This document shows positions 1 to 32,495 of a stretch of 64,000 nt of DNA, one piece after another. This DNA is from Antrodiella citrinella. Taxonomy: Eukaryota > Basidiomycota > Agaricomycetes > Polyporales > Steccherinaceae. The DNA lies in the NCBI GenBank assembly GCA_004802725.1, contig SGPM01000046.1, forward strand, positions 1 through 64,000, written 5' to 3'. The notes beneath the pieces are model-generated. The model was not told the origin of the DNA and did not search any database. It saw only the letters and a list, made by a program, of their open reading frames with translations. The position numbers were made by a program, and so were the translations under genes. Numbering within the stretch: the first letter of the stretch is position 1; each line of letters starts with the position of its first letter.

Positions 1-222
1 TGGAGGATGGATGGAGGACGGGCCGAAGACCGGACCGAGGATGGGTCGAGGACGGAAGATCCATCGAGGATGTATCGTGGCCTCCGTGGCCTCCTCGTGG
101 TGATGGAATGATGCAGACAGTTGATGGATTGCCAAGTCATGGATGGCCGAGACGTGGAGGGTGGATACCAGAATGGAAAGGCGGGTGAAGGATGGATGAC
201 GGACAGCGGCGGATGAGTCAAT
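1..222. repeat. Left arm of a long inverted repeat
   Basis: The first ~222 bases reappear in reverse complement at about 1940-2162 with high similarity, apart from small gaps and substitutions near the inner end. The arm is rich in GGATGGA-type words. The right arm continues past the homology, so the window edge probably truncates the left arm. This is seen directly. Reading it as the terminal repeat of a mobile element is inference. Confidence 0.8.
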
Positions 223-1939
223 GGACACGATATGACGGCCATTGGTTCCGGACGGAGGAGGTCGCACGCGATAGGAAATAAAGGACTATGTGTAGATTAA
301 TGTAAGCAGTAAAGTCAATATATACATGCACTGTGCTGCACATAGCTAGTCAGTTGACGTTGATCGAGAAGGACTTTCGGAACTCACATCAAGAACAAAA
401 CGACTGAGTGGGGGTGGGCGTGACTCGGTACAGAGACTGAGGGCATCGTTAGAAACGAGACGAAAAATGAACGGTGCACGTACATCGAGAATATCCGTCT
501 ACAACACCTACTCTGCGTTCCTATCCAAGGCTCCAGCCTCGACGGCACTGTTGGCGGCTTTCGCAGCACGTTTAGCGTGTCTGTCCGACTTGAGGATGGC
601 GTCTGGATAGGGCCGAACGGGAATGTGGATCGGCGCGCTCGAAACGACGCCGTTCGTGTCTAATGCCCGAATATTGCAATGCAACCTCGCGTCCGAGCGC
701 GAGGTGTGCGGTGCGTCCCTGTAAACGCGTGAGTCGAAATCATGAGAGATGGAGCGGAACGTACGTGACCAGAACCATCGGAGTATCCTTTGGAACGCGA
801 TTCGCTTCCTTCGCTATGGCGTCCTCGATGAACTTGCGCTTGGTCGTGCTTGAGCTGAGCAAGTTGTCCTTCCAAAAGACGGCAGGTGTTTTCTGTAAAG
901 ATAATGAGCGTGAGCGGTACCCCGACTGACTTCCCAATCGCAGGACGTACTACAGAGCTGAATAAACGACAGAGCTGGGAGGGGCGCGTAGTGCGGAACG
1001 TGAGGGAAATATAGAGCATCGCTGGTATACTTTGAATATATGTCAACGGACGGAAACAACGAACATTCTCATGCTGGTAAACCAGCAGGAGACATACTTT
1101 TCTATGAAGAGACGCTTGAGTGGTGAGATTATGAAGAGTTGGATTGATGAATAGGAAGTTGGAGGAAAGATTCTAGCACAATAAGAACAGGTGTAAACGA
1201 AGACAAGCAACACCCCAATACCGTAAAGCAGCATAAAATTTGAATATCAGATCACACACCTCGAAGTAGAAAGAAAAACTCGGTGCAGAATGATATGAGA
1301 GGAGTATTAATGGTCTTGAATCAGACAGAGGACGGTTGCTGGAAAAGCCGGCAGGTTGAGGATGATGGTGCAGAAAGAGTGACAGAGCGCGAGAGAATGA
1401 GGCACAGCTAGTGTTTTAATTCATACAGCGCGAGAAGATACACAAAAATCTTGATATTTGAAAGCAGAAACTGCATTGCAGACGTCGAAAACAACAACAT
1501 ATCGATCGTGGCGTCCATCGTCCTGAAGGATTCTACGACTACATACTATGCCACAGCCGTATCGTTCATGTCGCGAAGTCAATGGGGTGATAACGCGTAG
1601 AAGTACCGAGAGAAATGGACTGGTGCTGGTATACCAGCATAAATCCAAAGGCCGTCGCGTCGTTCCATCCACAGATCGCGTCCGTCTGGTCAATGGACGG
1701 CATTTGCCGAGTCTCAGCCCGGGACGCCAACGACCCGAGCCGGTAACGTCTTCTAATGCGTCACCGTGGCAGGACGCCTACGTGACCTTAAGGCGAAACC
1801 GGTTTATAAGACAAGGAAATTACATCACAACTTCCAGTGTGGTACGACTCGTACGAGTCCAATGCGAGTTCGAAGAAATGCGGTAGGTTCGTGTTCAATG
1901 TCCCGGACCTTACAGTAATAGTAAGTATTCGTTTCGACC
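223..1939. other. Interior between the inverted repeat arms, no recognised gene
   Basis: Several overlapping short open frames occur on both strands, but none has a recognisable domain, a convincing exon chain or sustained codon-like composition. I found no transposase motif. The segment could be the inside of a non-autonomous or decayed element whose ends are the long inverted repeats. Confidence 0.4.
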
Positions 1940-11315: not shown

Positions 11316-11887
11316 GTAAGAGCTCCTGTGCCGTGGTGAAGTGTAGGAGTAAAGACATTCAAGACGACAACGATTCAGAGCCGCCGCACTGGCAACAGCC
11401 TAGTTTCACAGGGAAAGCAATTACACAATTTGAAATCATGTACCTCTTCCGGCTAGCCCCGATCATTAATCGCTTTCTGAAGCTGGTTAATGTACCGGTT
11501 AATATTTGATAACGACAGAGTGCTTGTTTTACATGGGCTAATTGTGTTAGAATCCTCAGGCTTTCAGAAAGGCTATCCATCAAGAAGGCCTGCTAGACGT
11601 GGATGTTAACCGCATCCTAGAAATTGGCAGACCTTTGTTTTCTGGAGATAGTGATTTCATGACGATGGCTGGTGGGCGAGATCAAGTGAAGAGGAATGGG
11701 TGGCAGGAGGGGTCGGGATCGTCGACGTTCCTGTTTCGGGACTCGGTGTCTGACGTTCTCAAGAATGTGCGGGGGTGCGGGGGTGATGCAGATGACGAGG
11801 AGCTGGAATGATGAGGGGGCGAGATCTGAGTGCAGTGTCGTAGGCTGCGTTGAAATGGAAGGTTGGAAGCAGCGACGCTGTCGGTAC
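11316..11887. other. Intergenic, no recognised gene
   Basis: Open frames on both strands are short and overlap. No domain or exon chain was recognised. It contains the presumed promoter of the leftward membrane-protein gene. Confidence 0.35.
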
Positions 11888-12582
11888 CGAGGTTGATGCA
11901 CGGGTGGAACTCGAAGGCATGCTCGTGGGCGTTGGCCAGAGCAGCGACGATCAGGACGAGCAGCTCAGGCTCGTCGATGAAGTCGAATGAAGTCGAATGA
12001 AGCCGACTTCATCAACCCAGAGTGGTCACCGTAGTAGACAGTGGCCTTCGTTTCTTGAACAGCCATGCCAGTCGCGAACACCCGGATGCCATGCGTGAGC
12101 ATCGACTTCGTGTGCATTGCCGGGATGATCTCGGCCTTGTCAAGCAGTCTGGAGCTTGGAGGCAGGCGAGGAATCTGAGTGGCGATGGAAGACTCATCAC
12201 CTGGGCACCCGAATTTGTACGATTGTGGCAGCCCTACCTAGGACGACTCCAGGGTTGTACTGAGCGACGGCGTCCGAGTCGCTGATGACCTTGAAGACCC
12301 ATGGTCCTCGAGCGTCCCCCTCGTCGTCGTATGCACGAGGCATTTTGATATAAGACTCCAGGAAAGAGACTCGCAGTTTATGTGTGATACCAAGCCGAAG
12401 AGATGGGTGGAACCCGAGGACCGACGTGTGGGCATTGGAAAGAGCACCAATGACCAACACGAGCAGTGCAGGCTCCTCGATGAAGTCGAAGGGCTGGGAC
12501 TTCACGATGCCGAAACGGTCCCCGTAATACAGGGTGATTCTGGACTCTTGTATAGCGAGACCAGTTGCGTACAGTCGAAGTC
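11888..12582 (-). pseudogene. Chimeric FunK1 pseudogene built from two paralogues
   Basis: Read leftwards, 12582-12200 is nearly identical to about 21420-21800, inside the FunK1 gene at 20376-22569. 12190-11888 instead matches the reverse complement of about 30945-31250, inside the FunK1 gene at 30259-32495. The two pieces meet at about 12190-12200 with ~10 bases of unmatched filler. Both cover the same stretch of the protein, from about the ATG[ML]A[IV]QE motif to GFHP, so the region is repeated rather than continued. A ten-base direct duplication (AAGTCGAATG twice at ~11979-11998) shifts the frame. There is no start, no HRD region and no C-terminal part, so no working kinase can be made. 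The high identity of the first piece suggests recent copying. Confidence 0.85.
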
Positions 12583-12613
12583 CATGACCGTTCTCCTACT
12601 AGAGTTCATCTTT

Positions 12614-12654
12614 GAGTCACAGAGAAAGACGGATCCTGTCTTTCTCTGTGACTC
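12614..12654. repeat. Perfect short inverted repeat (hairpin)
   Basis: Two 17-base arms beginning GAGTCACAG and ending CTGTGACTC are exact reverse complements around a 7-base centre containing GGATCC. It begins about 30 bases beyond the right edge of the FunK1 chimera. It could be a cruciform former, a foldback insertion scar or a recombination footprint. Confidence 0.8.
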
Positions 12655-13962
12655 GAAGACGTTGTCTTGGAGCATATGAAAGAAATAACACAAGGGATGA
12701 CCCGCAATGTGCGAGCGGATAACGATGGGAGGGGCGGCGTTGATTGCGAATATAGAGGGATAGGTATGGCTTGGAAAGGGGAATGTTGCACATTTTGCTA
12801 ATCCGGCCGCTCTGTCCTCATTGCATGTTGTGAAGACTGTTACTTGAACGGGGATGGCAGTTGCACCAATGACAACATGAAAGTATTCAGCGAACCAGAG
12901 ATTCGCGGAGATGGACGATGTGGACTGGAGAAGCTACGCAGCACAATATAAATCGCCTGTAATCACAAAACAAGGCTGAAGAGAATAGACGTACCTTATG
13001 ATTTGCACTCCTGGCATACACATCATTGTGCATCGAACTGGGACGATGTCCACACGCAGACAACGCTGTCCCAGTTACATCGGCTCTCCGAGCCTGGAGG
13101 AGGGGTGGAAGAGAGCAGGGGAGCATATCTTGCGCGAGGCTGCTCGCAGCTGAAAAGAAATGCGATGTTGACTTGGGGGTTCGATGCATGACGCGGAGGT
13201 CGTTCAGGAGAGGCAAAATATCACAACAGGTATGAGAGGGTAGAAGAAGGTAGATGCTCTGAGGAATTCCGAACCGCATCGCACCTTATATATATAGCTT
13301 GGGAGGTAATGGCACAAAAGACATAGGATGCCTACTGTACATACTGGGAAGCAAGGGATGAAAGCCGATGCATCAAAGCTCGAAAGAGAGCAAAGGCAAA
13401 GGTGTCCCAACGCGAGATTGAAATTTCGTACGGATATGGTTGTTATGCCGAACGACCCACAATGCGGTATGTGTGCATACACGAAGGCCTTTCATGTTCT
13501 CATTTGCAAGAACATGCAGTTGGCGGCACTGTAAAAGACATGAATATTTGAATGGCATAAAGCAGTTGAGTGAAGTGGCACCGACCTCTTTGCTGAATCA
13601 CGGTGAGAAGGGGAGTGGCATCATCAAAGAGACGTAGCGTTTCGTTTGACTACATGTCATTCAGTACTAGCAGTAGTAGATTTGGACTATGGTCACGGCA
13701 GACTGAAAGCACGGTGGTGAGAGCGTCAAGGAGGTCACGGTGAAGAGAAAGAGTTCGGAGCTGTCCGGGACTCGAGCTCTATCTGGATCGCTGGTTTGAT
13801 CAATGAGAGAACGACTATCTTCTCTCGTAAGGTCAGCTACGTGAGACTAGTTTGATCCGTTCAGTACTCAGTTCCACCGCGAGTAAGGGCGTACATATAT
13901 GTCGTATGATACTAAAACGTCATTCCATATAATAAGTAGGTACATCGAGAACACATCAAAAA
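12655..13962. other. Gene-poor stretch downstream of the zincin gene
   Basis: The longest open frame, about 130 codons on the minus strand at 12887-13279, has no recognisable domain, and its Cys/His/Leu-rich composition gives no family. Nothing else could be chained. The leftward 3' end of the zincin transcript must lie between about 13700 and 13962. Confidence 0.35.
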
Positions 13963-16900
13963 TTAACCGCGTTTGACACGAGCACCGACCTCATCTGAGA
14001 GCAAGTCAAATTCTTTCTGCATAGCGGCACGAACAGCTTCCATCGCCCCCGCAGACACGTTGGATTTCTTCAGAATCTCATCGATATCTTTGAATAACGG
14101 AGAGGTTTGAGGCTCGTCCTTTCCACCGTCAAAACCGTGGGAACGATCAACGTCTCCTGTATCTGCCGTTGCTGCGTCGTAATCCGCGTCTGGAATGAAG
14201 AAGTCGGCAGGCAGCTTCTTGGGCATGTCCACGGTCTTGTCTGGGTCCGGCAGTTGCATGATGTAGCCTAATATCTGGGGCAAGAAATTTATCAGAAATG
14301 GCATGTCACGAAAGACAGGTACTTATGGGCTTACCTGGGGACCGGGGATACGAACCACACAGCCGTCAGAACACTGTTGGAAGCTGTACAGGTTTTCGCT
14401 GCCAGAGGATGAAGAACTCTGGCTGTACGAAAAGCAAAGTACACCACCCGACGCAGAAGCATCTTGGGCCATGCTACGTTTCGTGGCGCCGGTTTTCGAC
14501 TCAGACTCGCTGATCTTGATCGTGATGTCCTGTAGAGAGTTAGATAAATGGAGAACGTGTATCTGACGCGTGATATGCGCACCTTGCACAATATGTACCC
14601 GACAGGCCACGCAGGGAGAAGAGCCTGACTTCTGTCGTTGGAACGAGACCAGGACACGGCAGGATCAATGTGGTAGAACGACCCCGACTGCTTGAAGAAC
14701 TGCGGCTGGAACCACCCTGCGCGGTCCACCGTGACCAAAGTGGCACGGAAGCCTATCGTCACGTCATTCACGTATGTCGCGGATTCGCTACCCGCAAAAG
14801 CCTCGCTGCTCGACTGGCTTGTGCTAGCAGACAGCCACCACAGATTGACGTTCATGTTCATTGAATTGGCGGTCGCACTCGTCTGCTGACGGGAGTAATC
14901 GCTCTTGACCGAGTGATGCATCGTGATCTCCTGCCATCGGCTGCCGCCAGCAGTGTCGTTGGCTGCTGGGAAGTCTGGAATGTCGATAAGGGACGGTTGG
15001 TCGGCAGCTACCTTGGAGGGAGCAGCAGGCCGTGCATTCGTCTTGTTTAGCGACGTGTACCGCGCAGTCAGCTCGTTGATGTCACCAGTGATGCCCTCGA
15101 TGTGCAGACGGATCTGCTCCTGTTGCTGCTGCGTGTCCGTTGCCTCAGAAAGGGCAAATCCAGCCAAAGCCTGCGAATACGCTCGAGATGCGCTCGTCAA
15201 CTGCTTCTGTGCGCTCGACGTGGATGCTAAGTCCGTGATAAGGGTTTGTGCGACAACGCCCACCAAATCTTTGCTGTTGACCAGCTCAGTGACTTGACTT
15301 TCGACTAATGACCCGTCCGCGGCGTAACACGTCTTCACCATCGCCAGTACGTTCGACGAATACTTCATTGCGAGTGACGCTTGAGCATCGTCCAGCGACT
15401 CCTGGGCAGTCGCAACCGCTTGCCGCAGCTGAGCGGGATCGCCTCTTGCACCGAACTGCAGCGCCGTCAGCTGCTGATTCAGCACGTCCAATTGCTGCGA
15501 CTTCGCCTTGATCTGTTGGAAGATGAGGTCTGGGTTCTGGGTCAAATCCTCCAGTTTGAAAGACGTTGACAGTCCCTCGAACCAGTCGATCGGCGTCATC
15601 TGCACAGGGTACACATTCAGACTGCCGTCTAACGAGCTCATCGCCGCCTCCCGCAATGAGTCCTTCGCATCCTGTAGAGCTTCCGCTGCTGATTTGACGT
15701 CCAAATAGCCGACGTATTCGCGCACATTGTGGGAGTACCCACGGACGACGGCATCGGAATACTTGGCAGCCAACTGCGCCTCGCGGACGGCGGTAGTATG
15801 AGCGAGCTTACGCGTGACGTTGTTCAGCGCAGTCTTGGACTCATCCGTGCCCACCTTCAGCAGCAGCGCCTGCTCGATCATGCTATCTCGCTCCACCTCC
15901 CATGCCTGCTTCGCTTCCAAGTACTCCTGCATCAGCGCGTTACTGAGCTCCATACGGTTCACAGTCCCATTGTCCAGCTTATCTGAGATCGCGAACGCTG
16001 GCTTATCCACGTGAGCAGTCTGGCCAGACTGATCTTCCGCAGCAGTCTCGGAATCGTCGGTGGAACTCGGTACGTTGACTGTGTGCTGGGAGTTCAGTAG
16101 TTCGCGAATCCAGGACGCCGTCTTCACCTCGCGAAGCAGCCACTGACGAATTTGGTCCTGCTGCTGTGCTAAGCCGTTGCTGCGGAAGACGGGGAGAAGG
16201 TTGTTGATGAGCTGGTCGTAGACCTGGGACATCGAGACGCCGTTCGGGCCACTGACAACCTCCGCAAGATCGTACAGCTGATCGGTGAGACGGAACTCGC
16301 TCTCGTTGACGACAACCGGCTTGATGAACTGGCCATACACCCCAGCAGAGCCGGTGTCCCAAGCATATTGGCTGATCTGCAGAAAGCGACCAGGGAACTG
16401 GAGGGTGAAGATCTGGTTTCCGCCGGGTTTAAAGAACTTCTGGAGGGATTTGATGAGCACGGGTAGGAATTCACCCTCCGTGCGCACTCGTCCGTCTGCA
16501 GTGGCAGGATCAGTATCATCGAGGCCGTATCCGGCCTGAAGGACGGGATCATTGAGCCCTAAGTTTGGCCTGACACCCTTGATGATTGGTCCGAATTCTG
16601 TGTACAGAGCTTTTGCAAGTGCCTCGCGGAAAGCCTTGACGGCCGCGAGGAACGGAGCATCAGCCTCTGGAGTGTCTCCTCGCGCAGGATAGTTCTCCAC
16701 CATCTTGAGCAGTTTAGGCCATGTCTTCTTGGGTAGCTCAAGCTTCTTCAACGCTCGTTCCAGGCCATCTGTATTTTGAGCGTATAATGTCTATACTCTT
16801 CATCAGTATGGATGTATGCATTCCTCAAGACACGATTTCTTACCTTAACAAACGCCTTGTCTTTTTCCGAGATGACCGTATTGAATTTCGTCACGCGCTT

Positions 16901-19814
16901 GACTGCCTTTTCACCCAACTCGCGTCGAAGCGTCCGTCCATGGTACAGCATAATGGAGTCGGGATCCCAGCTTGTCCAGAGACCAATGTCATCGGGGAAG
17001 ATATATCGACCTTTCTCGCCGTATTCCGTCTTCGTATTCGGACCCTCATGCTCGTGGTAAAGACCAATTGCATGACCGACCTCGTGGAAGCATATCGCCT
17101 GCACCTCTTCCTGAGTAAGATTCTGCATCGCAAGATACATGGAAGTACGACTCGTGCCGACTCCTTGATTAGAGCCCGGGGTGTTGTCGAAATTCGTGAC
17201 AATCGTCCCTAGCTCGGTCCAGCTCGTTGGGTAGGTGGAATTCTTGGCATATGCTGGATCGGTGAACCATATTCTCAGGTCTGATTGACGATCACCTTCA
17301 ACAAATTTGAGCTTGGAGATCCTGGACCATTGCCTAAATGCCTCGAGAAGGGCGGCACGGCGAGGAGCACGCGAAGCAGTCAAATCGGCGTCCTCTCCAC
17401 GAAATTCGACTTGCTGGAAATAATACTTGATGGTTGCCCCGGGTGCCCAGAAGTGAGAATTGCGACCGCCAACAGCTCGAGCAACCCCGTCGGTAAGCTG
17501 CACCGACTCGACTTTTTCAGGGGTGCCACACCAATCGCTGAGCTTCACCAGCTCACGCTCACTGAGTCCTCCGTCCTCTATCTCCTCCTCCTCGGTCCCT
17601 TCTTCTTCCTCTCCTTCCTCCTCCTCCTCTTCCTCATCGATATCACGACCAGGTCCAGAAGGGGTGGCCGATGCACGCTGGGTAGCGGTCCAAACAGTGA
17701 ACTTCTCGCGAATGGCTTCTGCGTCGCTCTCCGCGAGGATATCTGCTTTGGTGGTTCCGGTCACACCAGCAACGTCCAAAGCGTGGGACAGCGTCCAGTT
17801 TGCATCCTTGGACTGGAAAGGATAGTTGATAACCATATAGGCCTTGTCGAGCTCCGAAAGAGCGTTGTTTGGCTTGATTTCGAGGCCTTGATTGTTCATC
17901 TCCTTCGGCATCATGTATCTAGAGTTCAATGAATATCAGTGGGAGGCGGATGAGAATACGAAGTACATACATCATGACCGAGGTGACGTCAAAATGCGAA
18001 TAGTTGCTCGTATCGCTTTTGTTGTAGACATCAATGATCTGCGCCTTGATCGTGGCCGCTGACCAGCCTTGCGTATCTGCATAGTACTTGTAGACGTCTA
18101 GACGACTAAGTGTCAAAGGGCGAAAACACGAATAAAGAGATACTGCTCACTTGGTTCGTTGAGGGTGATCGTGCCTCCCCTCGCAGGAGACTGGTGCTCG
18201 TGCATCATGCCGAGCGCATGTCCGAATTCGTGCAAGATGCTGCCTTTTTCGTCTCCGGTTAGATAAGGATTGGGAGTAATCCAACCCAAGTTCATTGTCA
18301 CTTCATCAGCTGCCAAACTCAGCACCTGCTGTCCAACATACGACCAAGATCCGTCGTTGGAGTTGAACGTGATGCGAATGAGGCCTCCTGTGTCAACACG
18401 AGTGATATTGAGGTTCGCGTATTTCATCCATTCTTGTACAACACTGGTCACTTTGTCCTGCTGGGCTCGGTTCCCCCCTAGGAACCTGTACGTGATCATC
18501 TGCAACGAGCAATGTCAGCGCAAGGGTTTTGGAGGGCCTATAACCACAAACCCTTCCGTTCTCCCAAAGGAGAGAAGACTGCGCAAATACAGCGCGAGCG
18601 GCCATCTGATTCGTAACCTCCTCCTCCACTTCCGCGGCATCCTTCACAAGGTCCGAGCAAACACGTCTATACCACTCTGGAGTCAACCTCGGACCCTCAG
18701 CGGCACGTCCGGCATTGTCGCCATCGTCAAAGTCAGGCCTCAACAGCTTATCTGCGTTCCAGATCGCGAACTGCTTCCTCACGTCGTTCGGTCGGGCGAG
18801 CAGCATCGCGTGCATGTCGTACGGCGGAACGCCCATCATGGCAAGTGCGTGGTCCAGCGTCCAGGCCTTCGCAGTGGGATCCAACTGGGAACGAGGGTAG
18901 TTGATAACCATGAACGCCTTGTCGTGATCAGACAGATAGTCATTGGGGGTGACGTTCTGTTGATCCGTATTCATCTCGCTGGATATGAAGCATCTATGGC
19001 CGTCACAATAAGCATGGTCGCAGACATTGATGATGGCAAAAGTAGGACCCACTTCATTACAGACGTGTCGTCGTAGCGCAGATAATTCGTCAAGGTACCT
19101 TGGGCATACACGTCCAAGATCTTCGCTTGGATGTCAGCGTCTGCCCAACCTTGAGAGTATTCATAGAAAGCCTTGGTGGCTAACAATACTTATCAGATCC
19201 TTCATACGTTCATCGAGCGCAAATAGTAACTCACTATCCGGATCCAGTGGGACAGTCCTGGGGTGTTCGTGGGTGAGACCCAGTGCATGACCGAGTTCAT
19301 GCAGGATCACGCCTTTCTCGAAAGGCTTCTCGTCCGCACTATCAAAGATCCAACCCAAGTTCATAGTGGCCTGAGAAGCCGGGACGTTATTCGCGAGGTT
19401 CCCGAGCACCGACCAGTTCCCGAGGGGGGCATTGAACGTGATACGGACGAGAGGAGGTGGAGTAGCGGTGGCGGCGACTAGGGAGAAGGTGACACCAGCA
19501 TATTTCGACCACTCGGAGATGTATTTGTTGACTTTGTTCTGTTGGTTGGTGGTCCCAACAAAGCTGCCAGGAAGATACGAGTATGTGATGTTCTGTCAAC
19601 CAGCGCGTTCAATAATCATGATCAGAGTGACAGAATGATGTGCGCGACTTACAGTGCCATTGTTCCACAGAACGGTGGTCCTCGCGAAAACAGAGTAGGC
19701 AGTGGAATCCGCGCTCTTTCTTGTGCTGGCAGATCCAACCACAAGTTGAAGGTGTTCCGGAGTCAAGTCCGCGCAATTCGTCTGGTACCAACCCGGCGCT
19801 GCCTGCGTGGACAT
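13963..19814 (-). CDS. Triple zincin metalloprotease with a large C-terminal module
   Basis: Ten exons join in frame: 19814-19653, 19592-19235, 19179-19053, 18993-18552, 18499-18151, 18097-17971, 17918-16844, 16790-14583, 14529-14335 and 14274-13963. The product has 1,784 residues. Three zinc-protease domains follow one another, each with HExxHxxGxxHE and a Met-turn: HELGHALGLTHE (~152) with TSVM (~212), HEFGHALGMMHE (~453) with TSVM (~518), and HEVGHAIGLYHE (~800) with SIMLY (~843). This is the astacin/matrixin-type metzincin signature, and all zinc ligands and the catalytic Glu are kept. The domains are joined by related linkers containing DKA[FY]MVINYP and WTLxHAL. The third domain has an acidic Glu-rich insert (~615-635). 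Residues ~890-1784 are a long, partly helical region with coiled-coil-like stretches (~1200-1480) and an aromatic C-terminal block with GWFQPQFFKQ and PAWPVGYI; I do not recognise it. There is no signal peptide at the chosen ATG, the first in frame. Substrate is unknown. Confidence 0.85.
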
Positions 19815-20375: not shown

Positions 20376-22569
20376 CTACACCCAATTCTCATTCTCTCCT
20401 ATGGCCTCCATGAAAGCGGAAAAATCAGGATCAGGGAGCTCCACCTGCTCCTCCTCTTCTTCTTCCTCGAGCTCCTCCTCAGGTCGCAAGCCGTAGGCCC
20501 ACCTCAGCTTATGCGCCGTGCGACGGAAGAGCGACAGCAGCGGCCTGACCCACGCCTCAATGAGCTCCCTGTACTCTTCATGTGCGTCCCTGAACAATGT
20601 CTCCATCGCTTCGTCCTGTGAGCGAGCGTACAGAAAGTCCGTCTTCGCGTATACGCAATGCGCCTTGTCCGCCTGCGACCATGACTGGATAGGCCTATCG
20701 TAGTCGAGGATTGCTGGGTTGTGTGCGACACAATAGAAGCACAGAAGGTAGAAGAACGACTCAAGATCATGATGATACTTGTGGACGATTGCGACCTCCG
20801 AGAGCAGCTCGATCGAGATGAACGGGAGCGTCCCGACGCACTCTATACGTGATTCCGGTAGCAAGCCATCTTGTGCCAGAGCACAGTCGTACTCGACGTC
20901 TTCTCTTCGACGGCAAAGGTCAAAGCCTGTCAGGATCCCATGAGGAGTATCGTTGTCCATAAAGTAGGCAACGTTGTTGGTGCTGATGTTCCTGTGGAGA
21001 ATTCCAGCGTACTCCCATACGCAACGGTGTGCTGCGATTGATAAGGTTAGGACAGGAAACAAGTGGAAGTTTGCGCTATGTTACACACCTCGAAGCACAT
21101 CCAAGAAGACAACCTTGAGTTCCCCCGCATTTCTAAGGGTAAACATGGGCAAGTAAGCATCCGTCACGATGCTTCGGCAGATCCGAGGGACGTTGCCCTC
21201 CACGTCGCCAAAGAAGTTCCTCGCGAGGCCCATTTGCGAGACCGACGCTTTCATCGAACAGTACAAACTTGCGACGTGCTTCGCAGCGTGCACATTGTGC
21301 TTTGGCAGCTCAACGTGGATCATACGCAGAGCATCATCCTCCGGCATGTACTTTTCCGAGTTCCAAACGGTCTTTAGGTAAAACTTTTTATCTCCAGTGT
21401 CCTCAGGGTCGGCAGGGTTCCTGGGCACCCGAACTTGTACAATGGTGGCAGCCCTACCTAGGACGACTCCAGGGTTGTACTGAGCAACGGCGTCACCGAT
21501 GATCTTGAAGACCCACGGTCCTCGAGCGTCCCCCTCGTCGTCGTATGCACGAGGCATTTTGATATAAGACTCCAGGAACGAGACTCGCAGTTTAGGTGTG
21601 ATACCAAGCCGAAGATATGGGTGGAACCCGAGGATCGACGTGTGGGCATTGGAAAGAGCACCAATGACCAACACGAGCAGTTCAGGCTCCTCGATGAAGT
21701 CGAAGGGCTGGGACTTCACGATGCCGAAACGGTCCCCGTAATACAGGGTGATTCTGGACTCTTGTATAGCGAGACCAGTTGCGTACAGTCGAAGTCCATG
21801 GCAGAGCATGGTCCTAACGAAGAGAGCGGGGACGATTTCATCGCCGTTGAGTGGTCTGGGGTCGGGCGACACGCGAGGCATCGCGGGGCCATCGTTGACA
21901 TCGTCCGTGAAGGGGATGCGGATTGACCTTGGAGGCTCCGCGGCGCCATCTTGAGCTCCCTAAAGCAAAGCATGAGCTTACTAAAAGCTAGCACCGCCGC
22001 CAAAATAACAAACATACCTCTCGTGGCTCGACGGCCACCCGAATGTCGTCTACCAGATTGTAATCCTGCTCCACCTCCTTCTGCACGTGTACGAAAGCTC
22101 CCAAGGTGTCCCACGTATCCTTGGAAGAAGAGCTGAAGGAGATTGACGGCGCGCACAGATCTTCAGGATCCGCTCGCTGATAGAAAGCGCCGTAAGGGAG
22201 CCTTCCCTTGGCCATGACCAGCTGGCGACGAGTTGAGGAAAGGATCCTGCGCAGAGCCTTGCTAGCAGCGAGTGCGCTGGTTGCGGTACCATATTCGTTG
22301 AGATAAAGGTGGGGAATGGTGATGTGGGGTATATTGTGCGCGCGATTTTTGATCATGCTTGGGTCGAATTGCCAGACACGATTGACAACCTCTAGAACGG
22401 GTGCATCACGAATGATATGGTTCCTGTAAAGGTACTGGGTTGCCCTGACATCTTCGGCATCAAGGAAATCTGGAATGGGGTTGGAAGGAAGGGGGTTTCG
22501 AGGGAGAGCAGGGGAAGCAGGTCGTGAAAGGTCATTATGGTCGTGAGGGATGGCGGAGGTGGAAGCCAT
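20376..22569 (-). CDS. FunK1-type protein kinase-like, probable pseudokinase
   Basis: Exons 22569-22018, 21959-21089 and 21031-20376 join in frame to 692 residues. The layout is that of FunK1, a fungal kinase-like family expanded in Agaricomycetes: a long N-terminal region (KDTWDTLGAFVHV, YYGDR, EPELLVLVIGALSNAH), then a kinase C-lobe with SFFYLL, and an acidic tail before NENWV. Two catalytic positions are altered. The catalytic-loop motif reads HRNIS instead of HRDIS (~residue 487), and the metal-binding motif reads GFD where the paralogue at 30259 has DFD (~512). Loss of both aspartates argues against phosphotransfer. The frame is intact, so I infer an expressed pseudokinase rather than a dead gene. 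Both introns sit at the same positions and phases as in the paralogue. A ~380-base piece is copied into the pseudogene at 12200-12582. Confidence 0.9.
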
Positions 22570-23229
22570 GACGATAAAAAGACAATAGAGGATGGAGGAG
22601 AGAGGAAGAACAATTAAGAGGAGACTGACAGCTCACAAGGAGGCTGAGGTCAAAGTGTGAATGGGAGCAAAGCTAAGGAGAAAGCAACCAGAGGAGAGTG
22701 CCACTCGTATTTTGGTTTGCTCGGCCACCGCACGTGTCTAAGCGGCGGCTAGATCTCGTTGCACCCATAAGGCATTTGTTTGGCCGTTGTGTGTATTATG
22801 GACCCACAGCGCGACAAGCGCGCTATGCACGAGTGGCCCTTCTCTGTTTCTCTCCTTGACATGACGTCCGAATCTGCGATACTATGAACATGATGGTGAG
22901 CGAATCATCAAGACTGTTAGGTACCCGAGTTCTGACCTTTCGACGCTGTCGCGGCACGATCGGGACTAACTACAGACATGTTTGCATTCATGTCCGCAGG
23001 CTGTGATCGCGGGCCACAATCCCCAGAACGTGTAATCCCTATCCGTTTGTTAGGTGAGTTCTATGCCTGATGATCGTAAGGTATCACTCACTGAATAGAC
23101 AAAGCGTGCGCAATTCATCGCGATCTTGCATTCGCTTGGACCAACAAAGCGACGGTGCATAACCTGAATGCAATTGTCTGCTAGGTAGAATCCGGCATGA
23201 GTCAATCGGCCTCCTACTTACCAATTGCC
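22570..23229. promoter_or_regulatory. Promoter region of the FunK1 pseudokinase gene
   Basis: About 22570-22850 is homologous, in the same orientation relative to the gene, to the region 5' of the other FunK1 gene (about 29990-30258). Shared strings include AGCAAAGCTA, CCATAAGGCATTTGTTTGGC and GTTGTGTGTATT. Within it, 22699-22837 is bounded by short inverted ends (CCACTCGT), as is 30003-30141. Past 22850 I see no further match and no gene. Confidence 0.6.
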
Positions 23230-29290: not shown

Positions 29291-29989
29291 TCAGCGGAGA
29301 TCATGCAAGTCCTAGCGATACTCGGCATCTTAGCGTGAAGACTGCATCGAGGCAAGCCAGGCAGAAGAGAACCGACCATGAAGGAAGTCGTCGACCTTCG
29401 AGAGACGTGCGATGCAGTCTTGTTCTTGGAAATCCGCCTCGAACATCAGAGCGTCGTGGATCTGCAAGATTAAGGCTGTTAGTTGCACGTCTAAGGATCA
29501 CAGTCAAGACCGACCTTGTCGCGTGGATGGCAGCCACAGTGGTGGCGAGTACACTACACAATCAATGCAACGCGTCGTCAAAGAAGAATAGTGTAAGTAC
29601 AATGGAATGCATCGATAGCTTTGACCTGCCTACGCTTGGTATGGATCCCAGACCTACATGCGATGTGGCGCTATGTGGCCCAGCGAATGAACGACATCGC
29701 TTTGCATCAACCGTATGTCGCTGCGATGCGGGACAACATCACGTCTATTGCATTGTACGTGACTCTCGGTATTGAACAATTGCATTGAGACTCACCTAGC
29801 AACCGGGTCCAGGTATTCACCACCCTGGGATTGTGGCCCGAGATCGCAGATATGAAAGCAACATGTCTGCGAGTAGTCCAGATCGCGTCGCACTAGTGTT
29901 TAAAGGTTAGTTCCGACTTGACTATCTGCCAGAATTGATACTTACGGCGTCGTAAACTTCTCAGTGTCGCAGAGTTGGATGTAAAGGAA
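29291..29989. other. Intergenic, no recognised gene
   Basis: The longest plus-strand frame, at about 29287-29775, has no domain signature and is interrupted by likely non-coding composition. Nothing further was recognised. Confidence 0.35.
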
Positions 29990-30258
29990 GAAACTAGAGG
30001 AGTGCCACTCGCGTGTGGCGCGCTTGTTGTGCTATGGGTCCGCAATACACACAACAGCCAAACAAATGCCTTATGGGCTCAACGAATTTCAGCCGCCGCT
30101 CGAACACGTGCGGTGGCCCGGTAACGACAACACGAGTGGCCATCGTCTGGCTGCCTTCTCCCTAGCTTTGCTACCAATCACGCTTTGGCCTAGCCCTTTT
30201 GTGAAGTTGTCTCCTGCTTTTAATTGTCCTTGTCCATCACCTATTGTCCTTCTTCATC
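29990..30258. promoter_or_regulatory. Promoter region of the intact FunK1 gene
   Basis: Homologous to the block 5' of the other FunK1 gene (about 22570-22850) but in opposite genomic orientation. The 30003-30141 segment is bounded by short inverted CCACTCG[CT] ends, like a small foldback or MITE-type element. A CT-rich tract just before 30259 is the likely leader. Confidence 0.6.
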
Positions 30259-32495
30259 ATGTCTTCTTTCTCCTCGTCCTCCATTCATGATTCTTACGAT
30301 TCTTCGGACGAGAGCTTAGGCTCTCGATCGTCAACTTTCTCCCGTCCTCCCTCTCCACCCCCACACGTGCCTTCTCTCTCTCCATCAGAGGTGAGGGAGA
30401 CTCAGCTCCTGTTCCAGGGGCGTGTCGTTCGTGAAGTGCCGGTGTTGGACATCGTGCGGGAGGCCTGGCGATTCCAACCGAGCGCAATATGCCTTCGACC
30501 TTTCTCCTCTCCCCCCATCACAATCTCACACGTCCTGCTACAAGCCTACGGTGATGCGATCGCGCCAGCTGTATACGTCAAGGCGTTCCTTGATATCATC
30601 CTTTCTATTCACAAGCAACTGGCCTTGGCGAAGGGCCGTTTCCCGTTTGGCTATTTCAAACAACATACCAAGGCAGGCGTTCGCGAGCCGGAGATCGTTT
30701 TCGGTACGCAGAAGAAGGATACATGGAACACGATGGGAGCTTGGGTGCATGTGAGCAAGGAGATCTACCATGACTACGCGTTGGAGGAAGACATCTGTCT
30801 CGATGTCGACGAGTTCAAGGTACGTCGGAGGCTCGAGTATCATCACGTTTCGTCCAGCATCTCTGACGTTTTTCTCTGCAGGAGCTCGGCCTCTACGATA
30901 ACGTTGAACACCATGTTCAACGAGTAAGGCGGGTCAATTTCGTGGTCGATGCTTCCATCGCCACTCAGATTCCTCGCCTGCCTCCAAGCTCCAGACTGCT
31001 TGACAAGGCCGAGATCATCCCGGCAATGCACACGAAGTCGATGCTCACGCATGGCATCCGGGTGTTCGCGACTGGCATGGCGGTCCAAGAGACGACGGTC
31101 ACCGTTTACTACGGTGACCACTCTGGGTTGATGAAGTCGGCTTCATTCGACTTCATCGACGAGCCTGAGCTGCTCGTTTTGGTCGTCGCCGCTTTGTCTA
31201 ACGCTCATGAGCGTGCCCTCGGATTCCATCCCTGCATCCGACTCGGCATTGACACCGTCACTGCTTCTCTGGCCACGTCGACTCTCCATTTCAATGCAGC
31301 CTACGAACTGGACGGGAACCTGTCGAAAAAGTGGAATTGGGAGGTGAAACAGGTAAGGGGAAAGCCTCTGCAGCTCTTCAACCACCAACACGTACTGGGA
31401 AAGCGCACCAACGTCGTCCCCATTCGGATGGCTGCCGTCCGGAATAATGTGGTCAACCCTTTGTACACCGGCAACACGGGCTTGGTGATGAAGACCTATT
31501 GGCCGAAGGAGAAGCATGTCTCAGAGGATCACGTACACAGGGTGCTGTACGCCAAGCTGAGGAATAAGCCGCATGTCCGCCAGCACATCGCGTCGCTCGT
31601 ATGCTCTGTGAAGGCGTCGATGGGCCAGCTGGGTCTTCCAAGGGCGTTCCTCGGAGACGTGGAAGGGGCCGACTGCAGAATGTTTTGTTGCATGGTCATG
31701 ACTGCTTATCGTCCCCTCGCTAGCCTGAAGACGGCCGCAGATTTCAAAATTGTCTTCCTCAATGCCGTCAGGGGTGAGTATCGTCTGTCTTTACGAAGTC
31801 TTTCCTTCCGCTAATTTTATTGCTCCACTTTAGCACATCACAGTCTATGGGAGGATGCTGGCTACCTTCATCGTGACATCAGCACTGGCAACATCATGTA
31901 CCTCGAGGAAGAAGGCAGAATTCGCGGTGTCTTGACCGACTTCGACCTGGCCCGTCCCCGGGAAGACATAGAACGGGATATCAAATTCGACGAGTACGAG
32001 CTCCTCTCAGAGAGCCGGATGGTCTACGTTGGCACTCGTCCTTTCGTGGCGTTGGAGCTTCTTGCCGATATGTCGCATGTCCAAACCTACCGCCACGACC
32101 TCGAGTCATTTTTCTATCTCTTGTGCTGGCATATCGCGGCACACAACCCCGAGATAGCGGCGTACGACGAACCTATCGAGGACTGGAGGGACGAGGACAC
32201 GCTGCACTGCATTTCGGAGAAGGGCGTATTCTTGTACTGCCGGGACGAGAAAGAGGCTATCGACACCGTCTTCAGCCGTTCCTATGAGGAGTACGACGGC
32301 ATCATAGAGGAGTGGGTCAAGCCTTTGCTGCGTCTGTTCCGCCGGGTGGGGCACAAGTTGAGGTGGGAGTACGGGTTGAGGGAGCAGGAGGAGCTCGAGG
32401 ACGAGACTGAGGAGGAGGCTGCTGAGCTTCCGAACGTGGACTTTGCCATGTTCATGGCGGCCATTGGGGAGAATGTGAACTGGCCCGCGGCGTAG
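30259..32495 (+). CDS. FunK1-type fungal protein kinase, catalytic residues kept
   Basis: Exons 30259-30819, 30882-31773 and 31834-32495 join in frame to 704 residues. Organisation matches the paralogue at 20376-22569: a Ser/Pro-rich start, a FunK1 N-terminal region (KDTWNTMGAWVHV, YYGDH, EPELLVLVVAALSNAH) and a kinase C-lobe. The catalytic loop reads YLHRDISTGNIM (~residue 497) and the metal-binding motif DFDLAR (~520), the family's form of DFG. Both are intact, so the protein may be an active kinase. SFFYLLCW and an acidic tail follow. FunK1 proteins are abundant in Agaricomycetes; their substrates are largely unknown. Intron positions and phases equal those of the paralogue. A ~300-base internal piece is copied in the chimera at 11888-12190. 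Confidence 0.92.

What the first reader, a model, noticed from the sequence alone, without database searches (positions are those of the whole stretch)
13963..19814. One gene encodes three complete tandem zincin proteases plus a ~900-residue tail
All three domains keep HExxHxxGxxHE and a Met-turn, and the exon chain is open for 1,784 codons. From general knowledge, most astacin/matrixin-type enzymes have one catalytic domain and a secretion signal. Here three sit in one polypeptide with no visible signal peptide, joined by related DKA[FY]MVINYP linkers. A multi-protease intracellular or unconventionally released effector or defence protein is an inference; the architecture itself is seen in the sequence.
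Basis: partly seen in the sequence, partly recalled or inferred. Interest (0 to 1): 0.88.

Follow-up and report, generated by a model that had tools for sequence, protein, structure and literature searches.

The report
Fungal tandem zinc-enzyme chain with tail
A wood-decay fungus carries one long gene with three zinc-protease-like units in a row plus a large tail that bacteria also have; in related genes the number of units varies, and the first unit has often lost its catalytic residue.

Summary
The ten-exon minus-strand model (19814..13963) is open for 1,784 codons and equals deposited protein EUX98_g2707 of Antrodiella citrinella. Units 1 and 2 (type A, astacin-like) share three introns at the same sites and phases, so they look like tandem DNA duplicates; unit 3 (type B) is matrixin-like. 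The 'linkers' DKA[FY]MVINYP are the ends of A domains. Of 68 relatives examined, 35 are A-B-tail and 8 A-A-B-tail; the rest carry up to four units. Two regularities: (i) 10 of 72 A units lost the catalytic Glu while no zinc-ligand His is substituted, at least seven changes on the tree; here all three sites are intact. (ii) A Cys precedes 58 of 59 A and 48 of 50 B units (background 16%), like a cysteine switch. The tail gave no significant Pfam or fold match and has free-standing bacterial homologues. No signal peptide is visible by hydropathy. Best reading: a latent cytoplasmic zinc-hydrolase array, perhaps for defence. Protease activity is unproven: the nearest characterised relative showed none (passages).

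The parts
13963..19814 (-). whole gene: ten exons, 1,784 aa (deposited as EUX98_g2707)
18891..19700 (-). unit 1 (type A, astacin-like zincin; residues 39-250), spans introns
   Evidence: PF01400 1.2e-7 on its main exon
19263..19301 (-). active-site motif of unit 1, HELGHALGLTHEH; catalytic Glu intact
17816..18629 (-). unit 2 (type A; residues 338-556), spans introns
   Evidence: PF01400 3.1e-10; PDB sequence match to myroilysin 9.3e-24
18194..18232 (-). active-site motif of unit 2, HEFGHALGMMHEH
16779..17494 (-). unit 3 (type B, matrixin-like; residues 664-884), one intron near its C-terminal end only
   Evidence: PF00413 3.3e-8; collagenase sequence match 1.4e-4
17048..17086 (-). active-site motif of unit 3, HEVGHAIGLYHEH
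19773..19775 (-). Cys14 (NCADL), putative cysteine switch of unit 1
18657..18659 (-). Cys328 (VCSDL), putative cysteine switch of unit 2
17528..17530 (-). Cys652 (WCGTPE), putative cysteine switch of unit 3
18630..18890 (-). linker 1, with WTLDHALAMMGV...VRKQFAIWNA
17495..17815 (-). linker 2, with WTLSHALDVAGV...IREKFTVWTA and an acidic tract (17567-17638)
13966..16640 (-). tail (residues 931-1784): helical region, then a beta-rich domain with two Ser-rich tracts; no Pfam match; bacterial homologues
   Evidence: (model of a relative's tail)
14775..14918 (-). first Ser-rich tract of the tail's beta domain (residues 1505-1552)
14362..14517 (-). second Ser-rich tract of the tail's beta domain (residues 1621-1672)

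Best explanation
One gene encodes a large protein, probably cytoplasmic, that strings three zinc-hydrolase (metzincin-fold) units onto a conserved tail. Shown: one open frame; units 1 and 2 look like DNA-level tandem copies of an A unit, upstream of a B unit; the tail is a separate module that bacteria also have. Inferred: each unit is held latent by its own preceding Cys, which caps the zinc (cysteine switch); the chain is stored inside the hypha and becomes active when the cell is damaged or eaten or when the spacers are cut; the tail holds the array together or brings it to a target, making it a defence or competition effector. In several relatives the first A unit has become a zinc-binding pseudoenzyme, probably serving binding or regulation. 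In this gene all three units keep the residues needed for catalysis.
For: Model and deposited twin. Units 1 and 2 share introns at homologous sites with phases 0, 1, 2. Same order in relatives: 35 of 68 A-B-tail, 8 A-A-B-tail, 2 A-B-B-B-tail, 1 A-A-B-B-tail. First A units of C399, C312, Steccherinum and Cristinia form one starred clade, with their second A units elsewhere, so the duplication predates these species. Glu lost in 10 of 72 A units, no His substituted, at least seven changes on the tree. Cys before 58 of 59 A and 48 of 50 B units against 1,356 of 8,283 background 40-mers. [quoted passage not shown] Purifying selection: pN 0.10-0.38 against pS 0.54-0.77 in the seven segments compared between C399 and C312. 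No strong N-terminal hydrophobic stretch in the window's protein.
Against: No expression, localisation or activity data. SCO6992, namesake of the nearest curated family, showed no protease activity. The Cys could be structural. Pfam found no lectin or toxin domain in the exons of this gene that were scanned. In Cristinia sonorae the deposited A-A-B-B model (P0137) and a tail model (P0001), on contigs of the same length, are separate genes; P0148, P0149 and P0150 have zincin units without a tail. Tail-only fungal proteins exist (P0007, P0012), so the tail does not need the zincins. Six of the eight A-A-B-tail proteins lack the Glu in unit 1, so three active sites are not generally required. Hydropathy at the N-terminus reaches 1.86 in one relative (P0143).
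Confidence: 0.4

Rival explanations
1. The units are zinc-dependent hydrolases but not proteases: glycosidases such as the beta-glucuronidase reported for SCO6992/AbsR1, or another activity, and the chain degrades polysaccharides or glycans.
For: The whole protein matches NCBIfam NF050131 (beta-glucuronidase AbsR1) with 181.7 bits, 1.9e-53, in three stretches; the main exon of unit 2 alone 1.7e-22 and the exon of unit 3 6.4e-7. Recombinant SCO6992 bound zinc, lacked protease activity and cleaved glucuronides (PMC9705864, passages).
Against: The score is far below the family cut-off of 650 bits. The glucuronidase claim rests on one report of a fusion protein. Unit 2 also matches myroilysin, a peptidase, at 9.3e-24, and the motif residues fit peptidases.
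Confidence: 0.2
2. A housekeeping intracellular processing enzyme, comparable with carboxypeptidase D or polyserases: several catalytic units of different specificity act on fungal proteins, with one unit tending to become inactive.
For: Conserved order of units, purifying selection, and pseudoenzyme conversion mostly at one place in the chain, as in carboxypeptidase D, whose third domain is inactive (PMC11266112, passages).
Against: Unit number varies up to four, six loci including one fragment lie in this genome, and outside the mushrooms only scattered fungi gave hits (three Fusarium proteins and one Pseudozyma), which is unlike housekeeping.
Confidence: 0.25
3. The long protein is an annotation fusion of neighbouring genes: zincin genes and a separate tail gene.
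For: Cristinia has what looks like a split model (P0137 and P0001); tail-only proteins exist in fungi and bacteria.
Against: The coding sequence is continuous from unit to unit through the linkers, without a stop. Zincin plus tail in one model recurs in 60 of 68 relatives examined, under many different locus-tag prefixes. Four paralogues in this genome have zincin units directly upstream of the tail. No promoter or terminator scan was run.
Confidence: 0.05

Closest known systems
SCO6992/AbsR1 (MMP-like sub-family 3, cd04327; NCBIfam NF050131)
   Same: Best-scoring NCBIfam family of the protein; HExxHxxGxxH zinc site
   Different: Single 359-aa bacterial protein without tail; score far below the family cut-off; its reported activity is beta-glucuronidase, not protease
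Myroilysin and astacins (M12A)
   Same: Best PDB sequence match of unit 2; Glu after the third His; myroilysin has a cysteine switch (PMC9848320, passages)
   Different: Described as secreted, with an Asp switch in animal forms; here no signal peptide is visible and several units stand in tandem
Matrixins (M10, interstitial collagenase)
   Same: Unit 3 matches PF00413 and collagenase chains; WCGTPE before it resembles the matrixin Cys-switch motif (that motif recalled)
   Different: No signal peptide visible, no hemopexin domain found; embedded in a chain
Carboxypeptidase D and polyserases
   Same: Several catalytic units of one fold in one chain, some inactive (PMC11266112, passages; PMC1435904 and PMC5683605, listing)
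   Different: Other folds (M14 carboxypeptidases, serine proteases), animal proteins, no such tail
Cytoplasmic fungal defence proteins (lectins, lipases CLT1/CLT2); also the chimerolectin CCTX2
   Same: Mushroom proteins, the lipases and many lectins stored in the cytoplasm and acting on nematodes (PMC10512399, abstract; CCTX2: PMC13324453, abstract)
   Different: No lectin or lipase domain found here; no induction or toxicity data
Bacterial tail homologues (Oscillibacter, Treponema, Anabaena and others)
   Same: The same module of about 750 aa, 23-29% identical to fungal tails in the two alignments made, with IPGPQ and both Ser-rich tracts
   Different: Free-standing, no Pfam domain listed on any of the 120 shown; function unknown

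Membership tests
Metzincin-fold zinc enzymes | HExxHxxGxxH/D zinc site with a Met-turn | tested here: met
   All three units
Metzincin-fold zinc enzymes | Zinc-dependent peptidase activity | not testable with these tools
   Needs an assay; a related protein showed none (passages)
Astacin family M12A | Pfam PF01400 over its cut-off | tested here: met
   Units 1, 2 and 3: 32, 40.5 and 26.8 bits against 22.5
Astacin family M12A | Signal peptide, and in animal forms a prodomain Asp switch | tested here: inconclusive
   No hydrophobic N-terminus by hydropathy, no dedicated predictor run; a conserved Cys stands before the units; definition from PMC9848320, listing and passages
Astacin family M12A | Extended signature GFxHExxRxDR (recalled) | tested here: not met
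   L, M and L at the Phe position and no RxDR (sequence)
Matrixin family M10 (unit 3) | PF00413 over its cut-off | tested here: met
   34.0 against 24 bits
Matrixin family M10 (unit 3) | PRCGVPD cysteine-switch motif (recalled) | tested here: inconclusive
   WCGTPE around Cys652; Cys before 48 of 50 B units
AbsR1 beta-glucuronidase (NF050131) | Curated score cut-off | tested here: not met
   181.7 against 650 bits
Cytoplasmic fungal defence proteins | No classical signal peptide | tested here: inconclusive
   Hydropathy of 68 deposited models, some truncated; window 0.76, highest 1.86
Cytoplasmic fungal defence proteins | Induced by or toxic to grazers | not testable with these tools
   No expression or bioassay data
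Pore-forming proteins (MACPF, gasdermin, aerolysin types) | Fold of the tail's beta domain | tested here: inconclusive
   Such entries are among the top rows, but at E 0.035 or worse and probability 0.15 or less; the domain model has pLDDT 58.8

The most novel reading that the evidence does not exclude
The tail is an undescribed cross-kingdom carrier, possibly pore-forming, that works with interchangeable hydrolases: fused zincin arrays in fungi and separately encoded hydrolases nearby in bacteria. The fungal gene would then be a new kind of multi-enzyme effector whose first unit is repeatedly converted into a zinc-binding pseudoenzyme.
Probability: 0.2. Interest if true: 0.85.

Novelty: new variant of a known kind. 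Interest (0 to 1): 0.55.

Why it matters
Proteins with several catalytic units in one chain are few, and here the number of units varies up to four between relatives while the tail stays: a natural experiment in how multi-catalytic enzymes grow and how single units turn into pseudoenzymes. Loss of the catalytic Glu with the zinc ligands kept suggests that zinc binding without catalysis is useful there. The Cys before nearly every unit gives a direct, testable latency mechanism. The tail is a large family shared by fungi and bacteria for which I found no Pfam model over its cut-off; one hit, P0043, carries a precomputed PF27303 label that my scan did not reproduce.

Tried and rejected
Separate genes: judged unlikely because the coding sequence runs on without a stop and relatives repeat the order. 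No promoter or terminator scan was run.

Bacterial context: no tail homologue in plasmids or phages with P0090, none in plasmids with P0266, none in viral contigs with A5; three loci in genome contigs. In prokaryote genomes it is rare: 1 of 400, 2 of 291, 2 of 394, 1 of 398 and 2 of 392; each count includes the centre genome itself, and the second hit is a weak partial match (4.3e-5). Five bacterial loci were read (L018, L019, L020, L026, L028). Of the neighbours scanned, M23 lies directly downstream in L020, M15 two genes downstream in L028, an N-terminal Asn amidohydrolase two genes downstream in L018 with a C45-like ORF (below cut-off) between; the scanned neighbours in L026 (one ORF) and L019 (two ORFs) had no match. 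Not every neighbour was scanned. A ribosome-inactivating-protein hit upstream in L020 (0.013) is below the cut-off and I do not rely on it. Five loci are too few to claim a rule.

N-terminal extension of Artomyces P0139: no PDB match for its first 367 residues and no Pfam match there. Literature: ten searches; those aimed at the architecture or the ZnMc family listed no description of it. Most subscription journals are not held.

Limits and dropped rows: unit counts use 68 proteins of the 177 found, those of 1,000 aa or more and P0106-P0150; shorter hits and P0151-P0177 were left out. Units were found with profiles that include the motif, and pieces under 150 aa were left out of the residue counts (under 100 aa of the architecture counts), so badly decayed units may be missed. 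P0147 counts as A-tail because its B match is short; P0011 counts as having no unit because its deposited model lacks the motif, though the DNA (C542) shows HQLLH. For the Cys count 19 units were set aside for unclear starts. Two A units have a gap at the third His (P0037, P0116). The A-unit tree is a quick one with three long branches (P0111, P0085, P0010), 26 of 69 inner branches open, and the Glu column was not taken out; its counts cannot tell gain from loss. The Glu-only pattern against B units gives Fisher p 0.0037 by units and 0.010 by seven tree changes; rows are related, so this is indicative.
Full report
What is there. On the minus strand, ten exons joined by nine GT..AG introns of 52-60 nt give one frame of 1,784 codons, ATG at 19814, stop ending at 13963; an in-frame stop lies 36 nt upstream of the ATG. 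The same protein is deposited as EUX98_g2707 of Antrodiella citrinella (100% over its whole length, contig of 120,278 bases), and the window's contig C399 has that length.

Domains. Unit 1 (residues 39-250) and unit 2 (338-556) match Pfam Astacin best; unit 3 (664-884) matches Matrixin best. Unit 2 matches myroilysin in the PDB at 9.3e-24 and crayfish astacin at 1.3e-6; unit 3 matches collagenases at 1.4e-4. Units 1 and 2 are 43% identical, and each is 23% identical to unit 3. I call the first kind A and the second B. The phrase DKA[FY]MVINYP is the last part of each A domain. After units 1 and 2 follows a stretch that shares WTLxxALxxxGV and F..W.A. The rest, about 850 residues, is the tail, with no Pfam match.

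How it grew. Introns 1-3 in unit 1 and introns 4-6 in unit 2 lie at the same sites with phases 0, 1 and 2, so one A unit was probably copied as DNA. On a tree of 72 A units, the first A units of C399, C312, three Steccherinum proteins and Cristinia P0137 form a starred clade, and their second A units lie elsewhere, so the copy predates these species; the first unit of C224 (P0111), a very long branch, falls apart from them. First units of the Mycena and Favolaschia proteins with two A units form another starred clade. Among 68 relatives examined, 35 are A-B-tail, 9 A-tail, 8 A-A-B-tail, 4 B-tail, 2 A-B-B-B-tail, and one each A-A-B-B-tail, A-B-B-tail, A-A-B-B, A-A-B, A-A and A; 4 have a tail without a counted unit. 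Several of these are truncated or doubtful gene models.

Paralogues in this genome. The tail search finds five further loci. Read piece by piece with tblastn: C312 is A-A-B-B-tail with four intact motifs; C224 and C164 are A-A-B-tail with the first motif HHFGH and HQFGH; C542 is A-tail with HQLLH; C113 holds only the C-terminal part of a tail, with two stops in the match that I did not resolve. Between C399 and C312, nonsynonymous differences are far rarer than synonymous ones in all seven segments compared (pN 0.10-0.38, pS 0.54-0.77); the helical part of the tail is the most conserved (83% identical) and unit 3 the least (44%). Synonymous sites are near saturation, so ratios are rough.

A pseudoenzyme position. 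In an alignment of 72 A units, the first two zinc-ligand His and the Gly are present in 72, the third His in 70 with two gaps, and the Met of the Met-turn in 71 with one gap. The catalytic Glu is replaced in 10: Q in four, T in two, and M, H, V, A once each. Six of the ten are the first unit of A-A-B-tail proteins, so six of the eight such proteins have lost it there; the window's gene and P0115 have not. The tree needs at least seven changes, P0116 left out because of its gap. C164 and C542 add two cases seen only in DNA. B units decay otherwise: of 56, five lack the full motif, and four of these lost a His. Random decay should hit any ligand, so zinc binding without catalysis may be kept by selection. 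Loss of the general base is known in other metallopeptidase families (PMC11266112, passages).

A latency element. A Cys lies 5 to 45 residues before the domain in 58 of 59 A units and 48 of 50 B units with clear starts, against 1,356 of 8,283 other 40-residue stretches of the same proteins. In the window's protein these are Cys14, Cys328 and Cys652; it has ten Cys in all. [quoted passage not shown] I infer that each unit carries its own zinc-capping Cys. This is not shown.

Protease or not. The best NCBIfam match of the whole protein is AbsR1 (1.9e-53, but 181.7 of the 650 bits required). Its namesake SCO6992 bound zinc, showed no protease activity, and was reported to cleave glucuronides (PMC9705864, passages). 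So 'protease' should be read as 'metzincin-fold hydrolase'.

The tail. A search with the tail exon found 105 proteins; the named ones are mostly mushroom-forming fungi, one Fusarium and Oscillibacter, and many have no name. A profile search found 126 (120 listed), among them Oscillibacter, Treponema, Lachnospiraceae, Pseudobacteroides, Thalassocella, Paludibacterium, Anabaena and Nostoc, none of the 120 with a precomputed Pfam domain. On a quick tree of 55, bacteria and fungi are separated by one branch with full support, so one transfer is enough to explain it. Conserved points include IPGPQ and two Ser-rich tracts with aromatic or hydrophobic centres. The model of a relative's tail (P0001) shows a long helical part and long beta strands (pLDDT 74.5). 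No fold match is significant. In the five bacterial loci read, a zinc peptidase gene lies one or two genes downstream in two (M23 in L020; M15 in L028), an N-terminal Asn amidohydrolase two genes downstream in one (L018), and L019 and L028 share an unknown neighbour gene (32% identical).

Most likely function. No N-terminal hydrophobic segment is visible in the window's protein, which fits a cytoplasmic protein. Mushrooms store cytoplasmic defence proteins, some of them enzymes, that act on nematodes (PMC10512399, abstract), and make AB-toxin-like defence proteins (PMC13324453, abstract). A latent zinc-hydrolase array with changing unit number fits that pattern, but an internal processing enzyme fits too, and nothing here decides between them.

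Verdict. Observation confirmed; interpretation partly supported. The architecture belongs to a fungal family whose members are deposited but which my searches did not find described; the tail family, the Glu losses and the Cys pattern are the parts worth following.

Noticed in passing
window 12197-12595 and 20376-21959 (minus strand): Fungal protein kinase (PF17667) frames lie beside the zincin gene at 20376-21080 and 21081-21959; the segment 21420-21800 is 95% identical to 12200-12586 on the other side of the gene.
   Followed up: partly
window 1-229 and 1939-2162; 11830-12191 and 30952-31313; 22562-23066 and 29782-30266: Inverted repeat pairs of 93%, 85% and 72% identity within the window.
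   Followed up: no
window 12609-12659: Short near-perfect palindrome of about 51 bases (92%) beside the kinase fragment.
   Followed up: no
window 17567-17638: Acidic run DEEEEEEEGEEEEGTEEEEIEDGG between units 2 and 3.
   Followed up: no
P0139, P0142, P0143, P0147, N-terminal ~440-500 residues: Relatives from Artomyces, Auriscalpium and Pseudozyma carry an N-terminal extension; no Pfam match there in P0139, P0142 and P0147; the piece from P0139 has no PDB match.
   Followed up: partly
L020 9923-12054: The tail homologue of Anaerotruncus massiliensis is split into two overlapping frames.
   Followed up: no
L028 7046-8182 and L019 8797-9963: An unknown protein of about 380 aa is encoded next to the tail gene in two bacterial loci (32% identical), with no Pfam match.
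   Followed up: partly
P0137 and P0001 (Cristinia sonorae): Two deposited models on contigs of the same length look like one A-A-B-B-tail gene split by annotation; I did not have the DNA.
   Followed up: no
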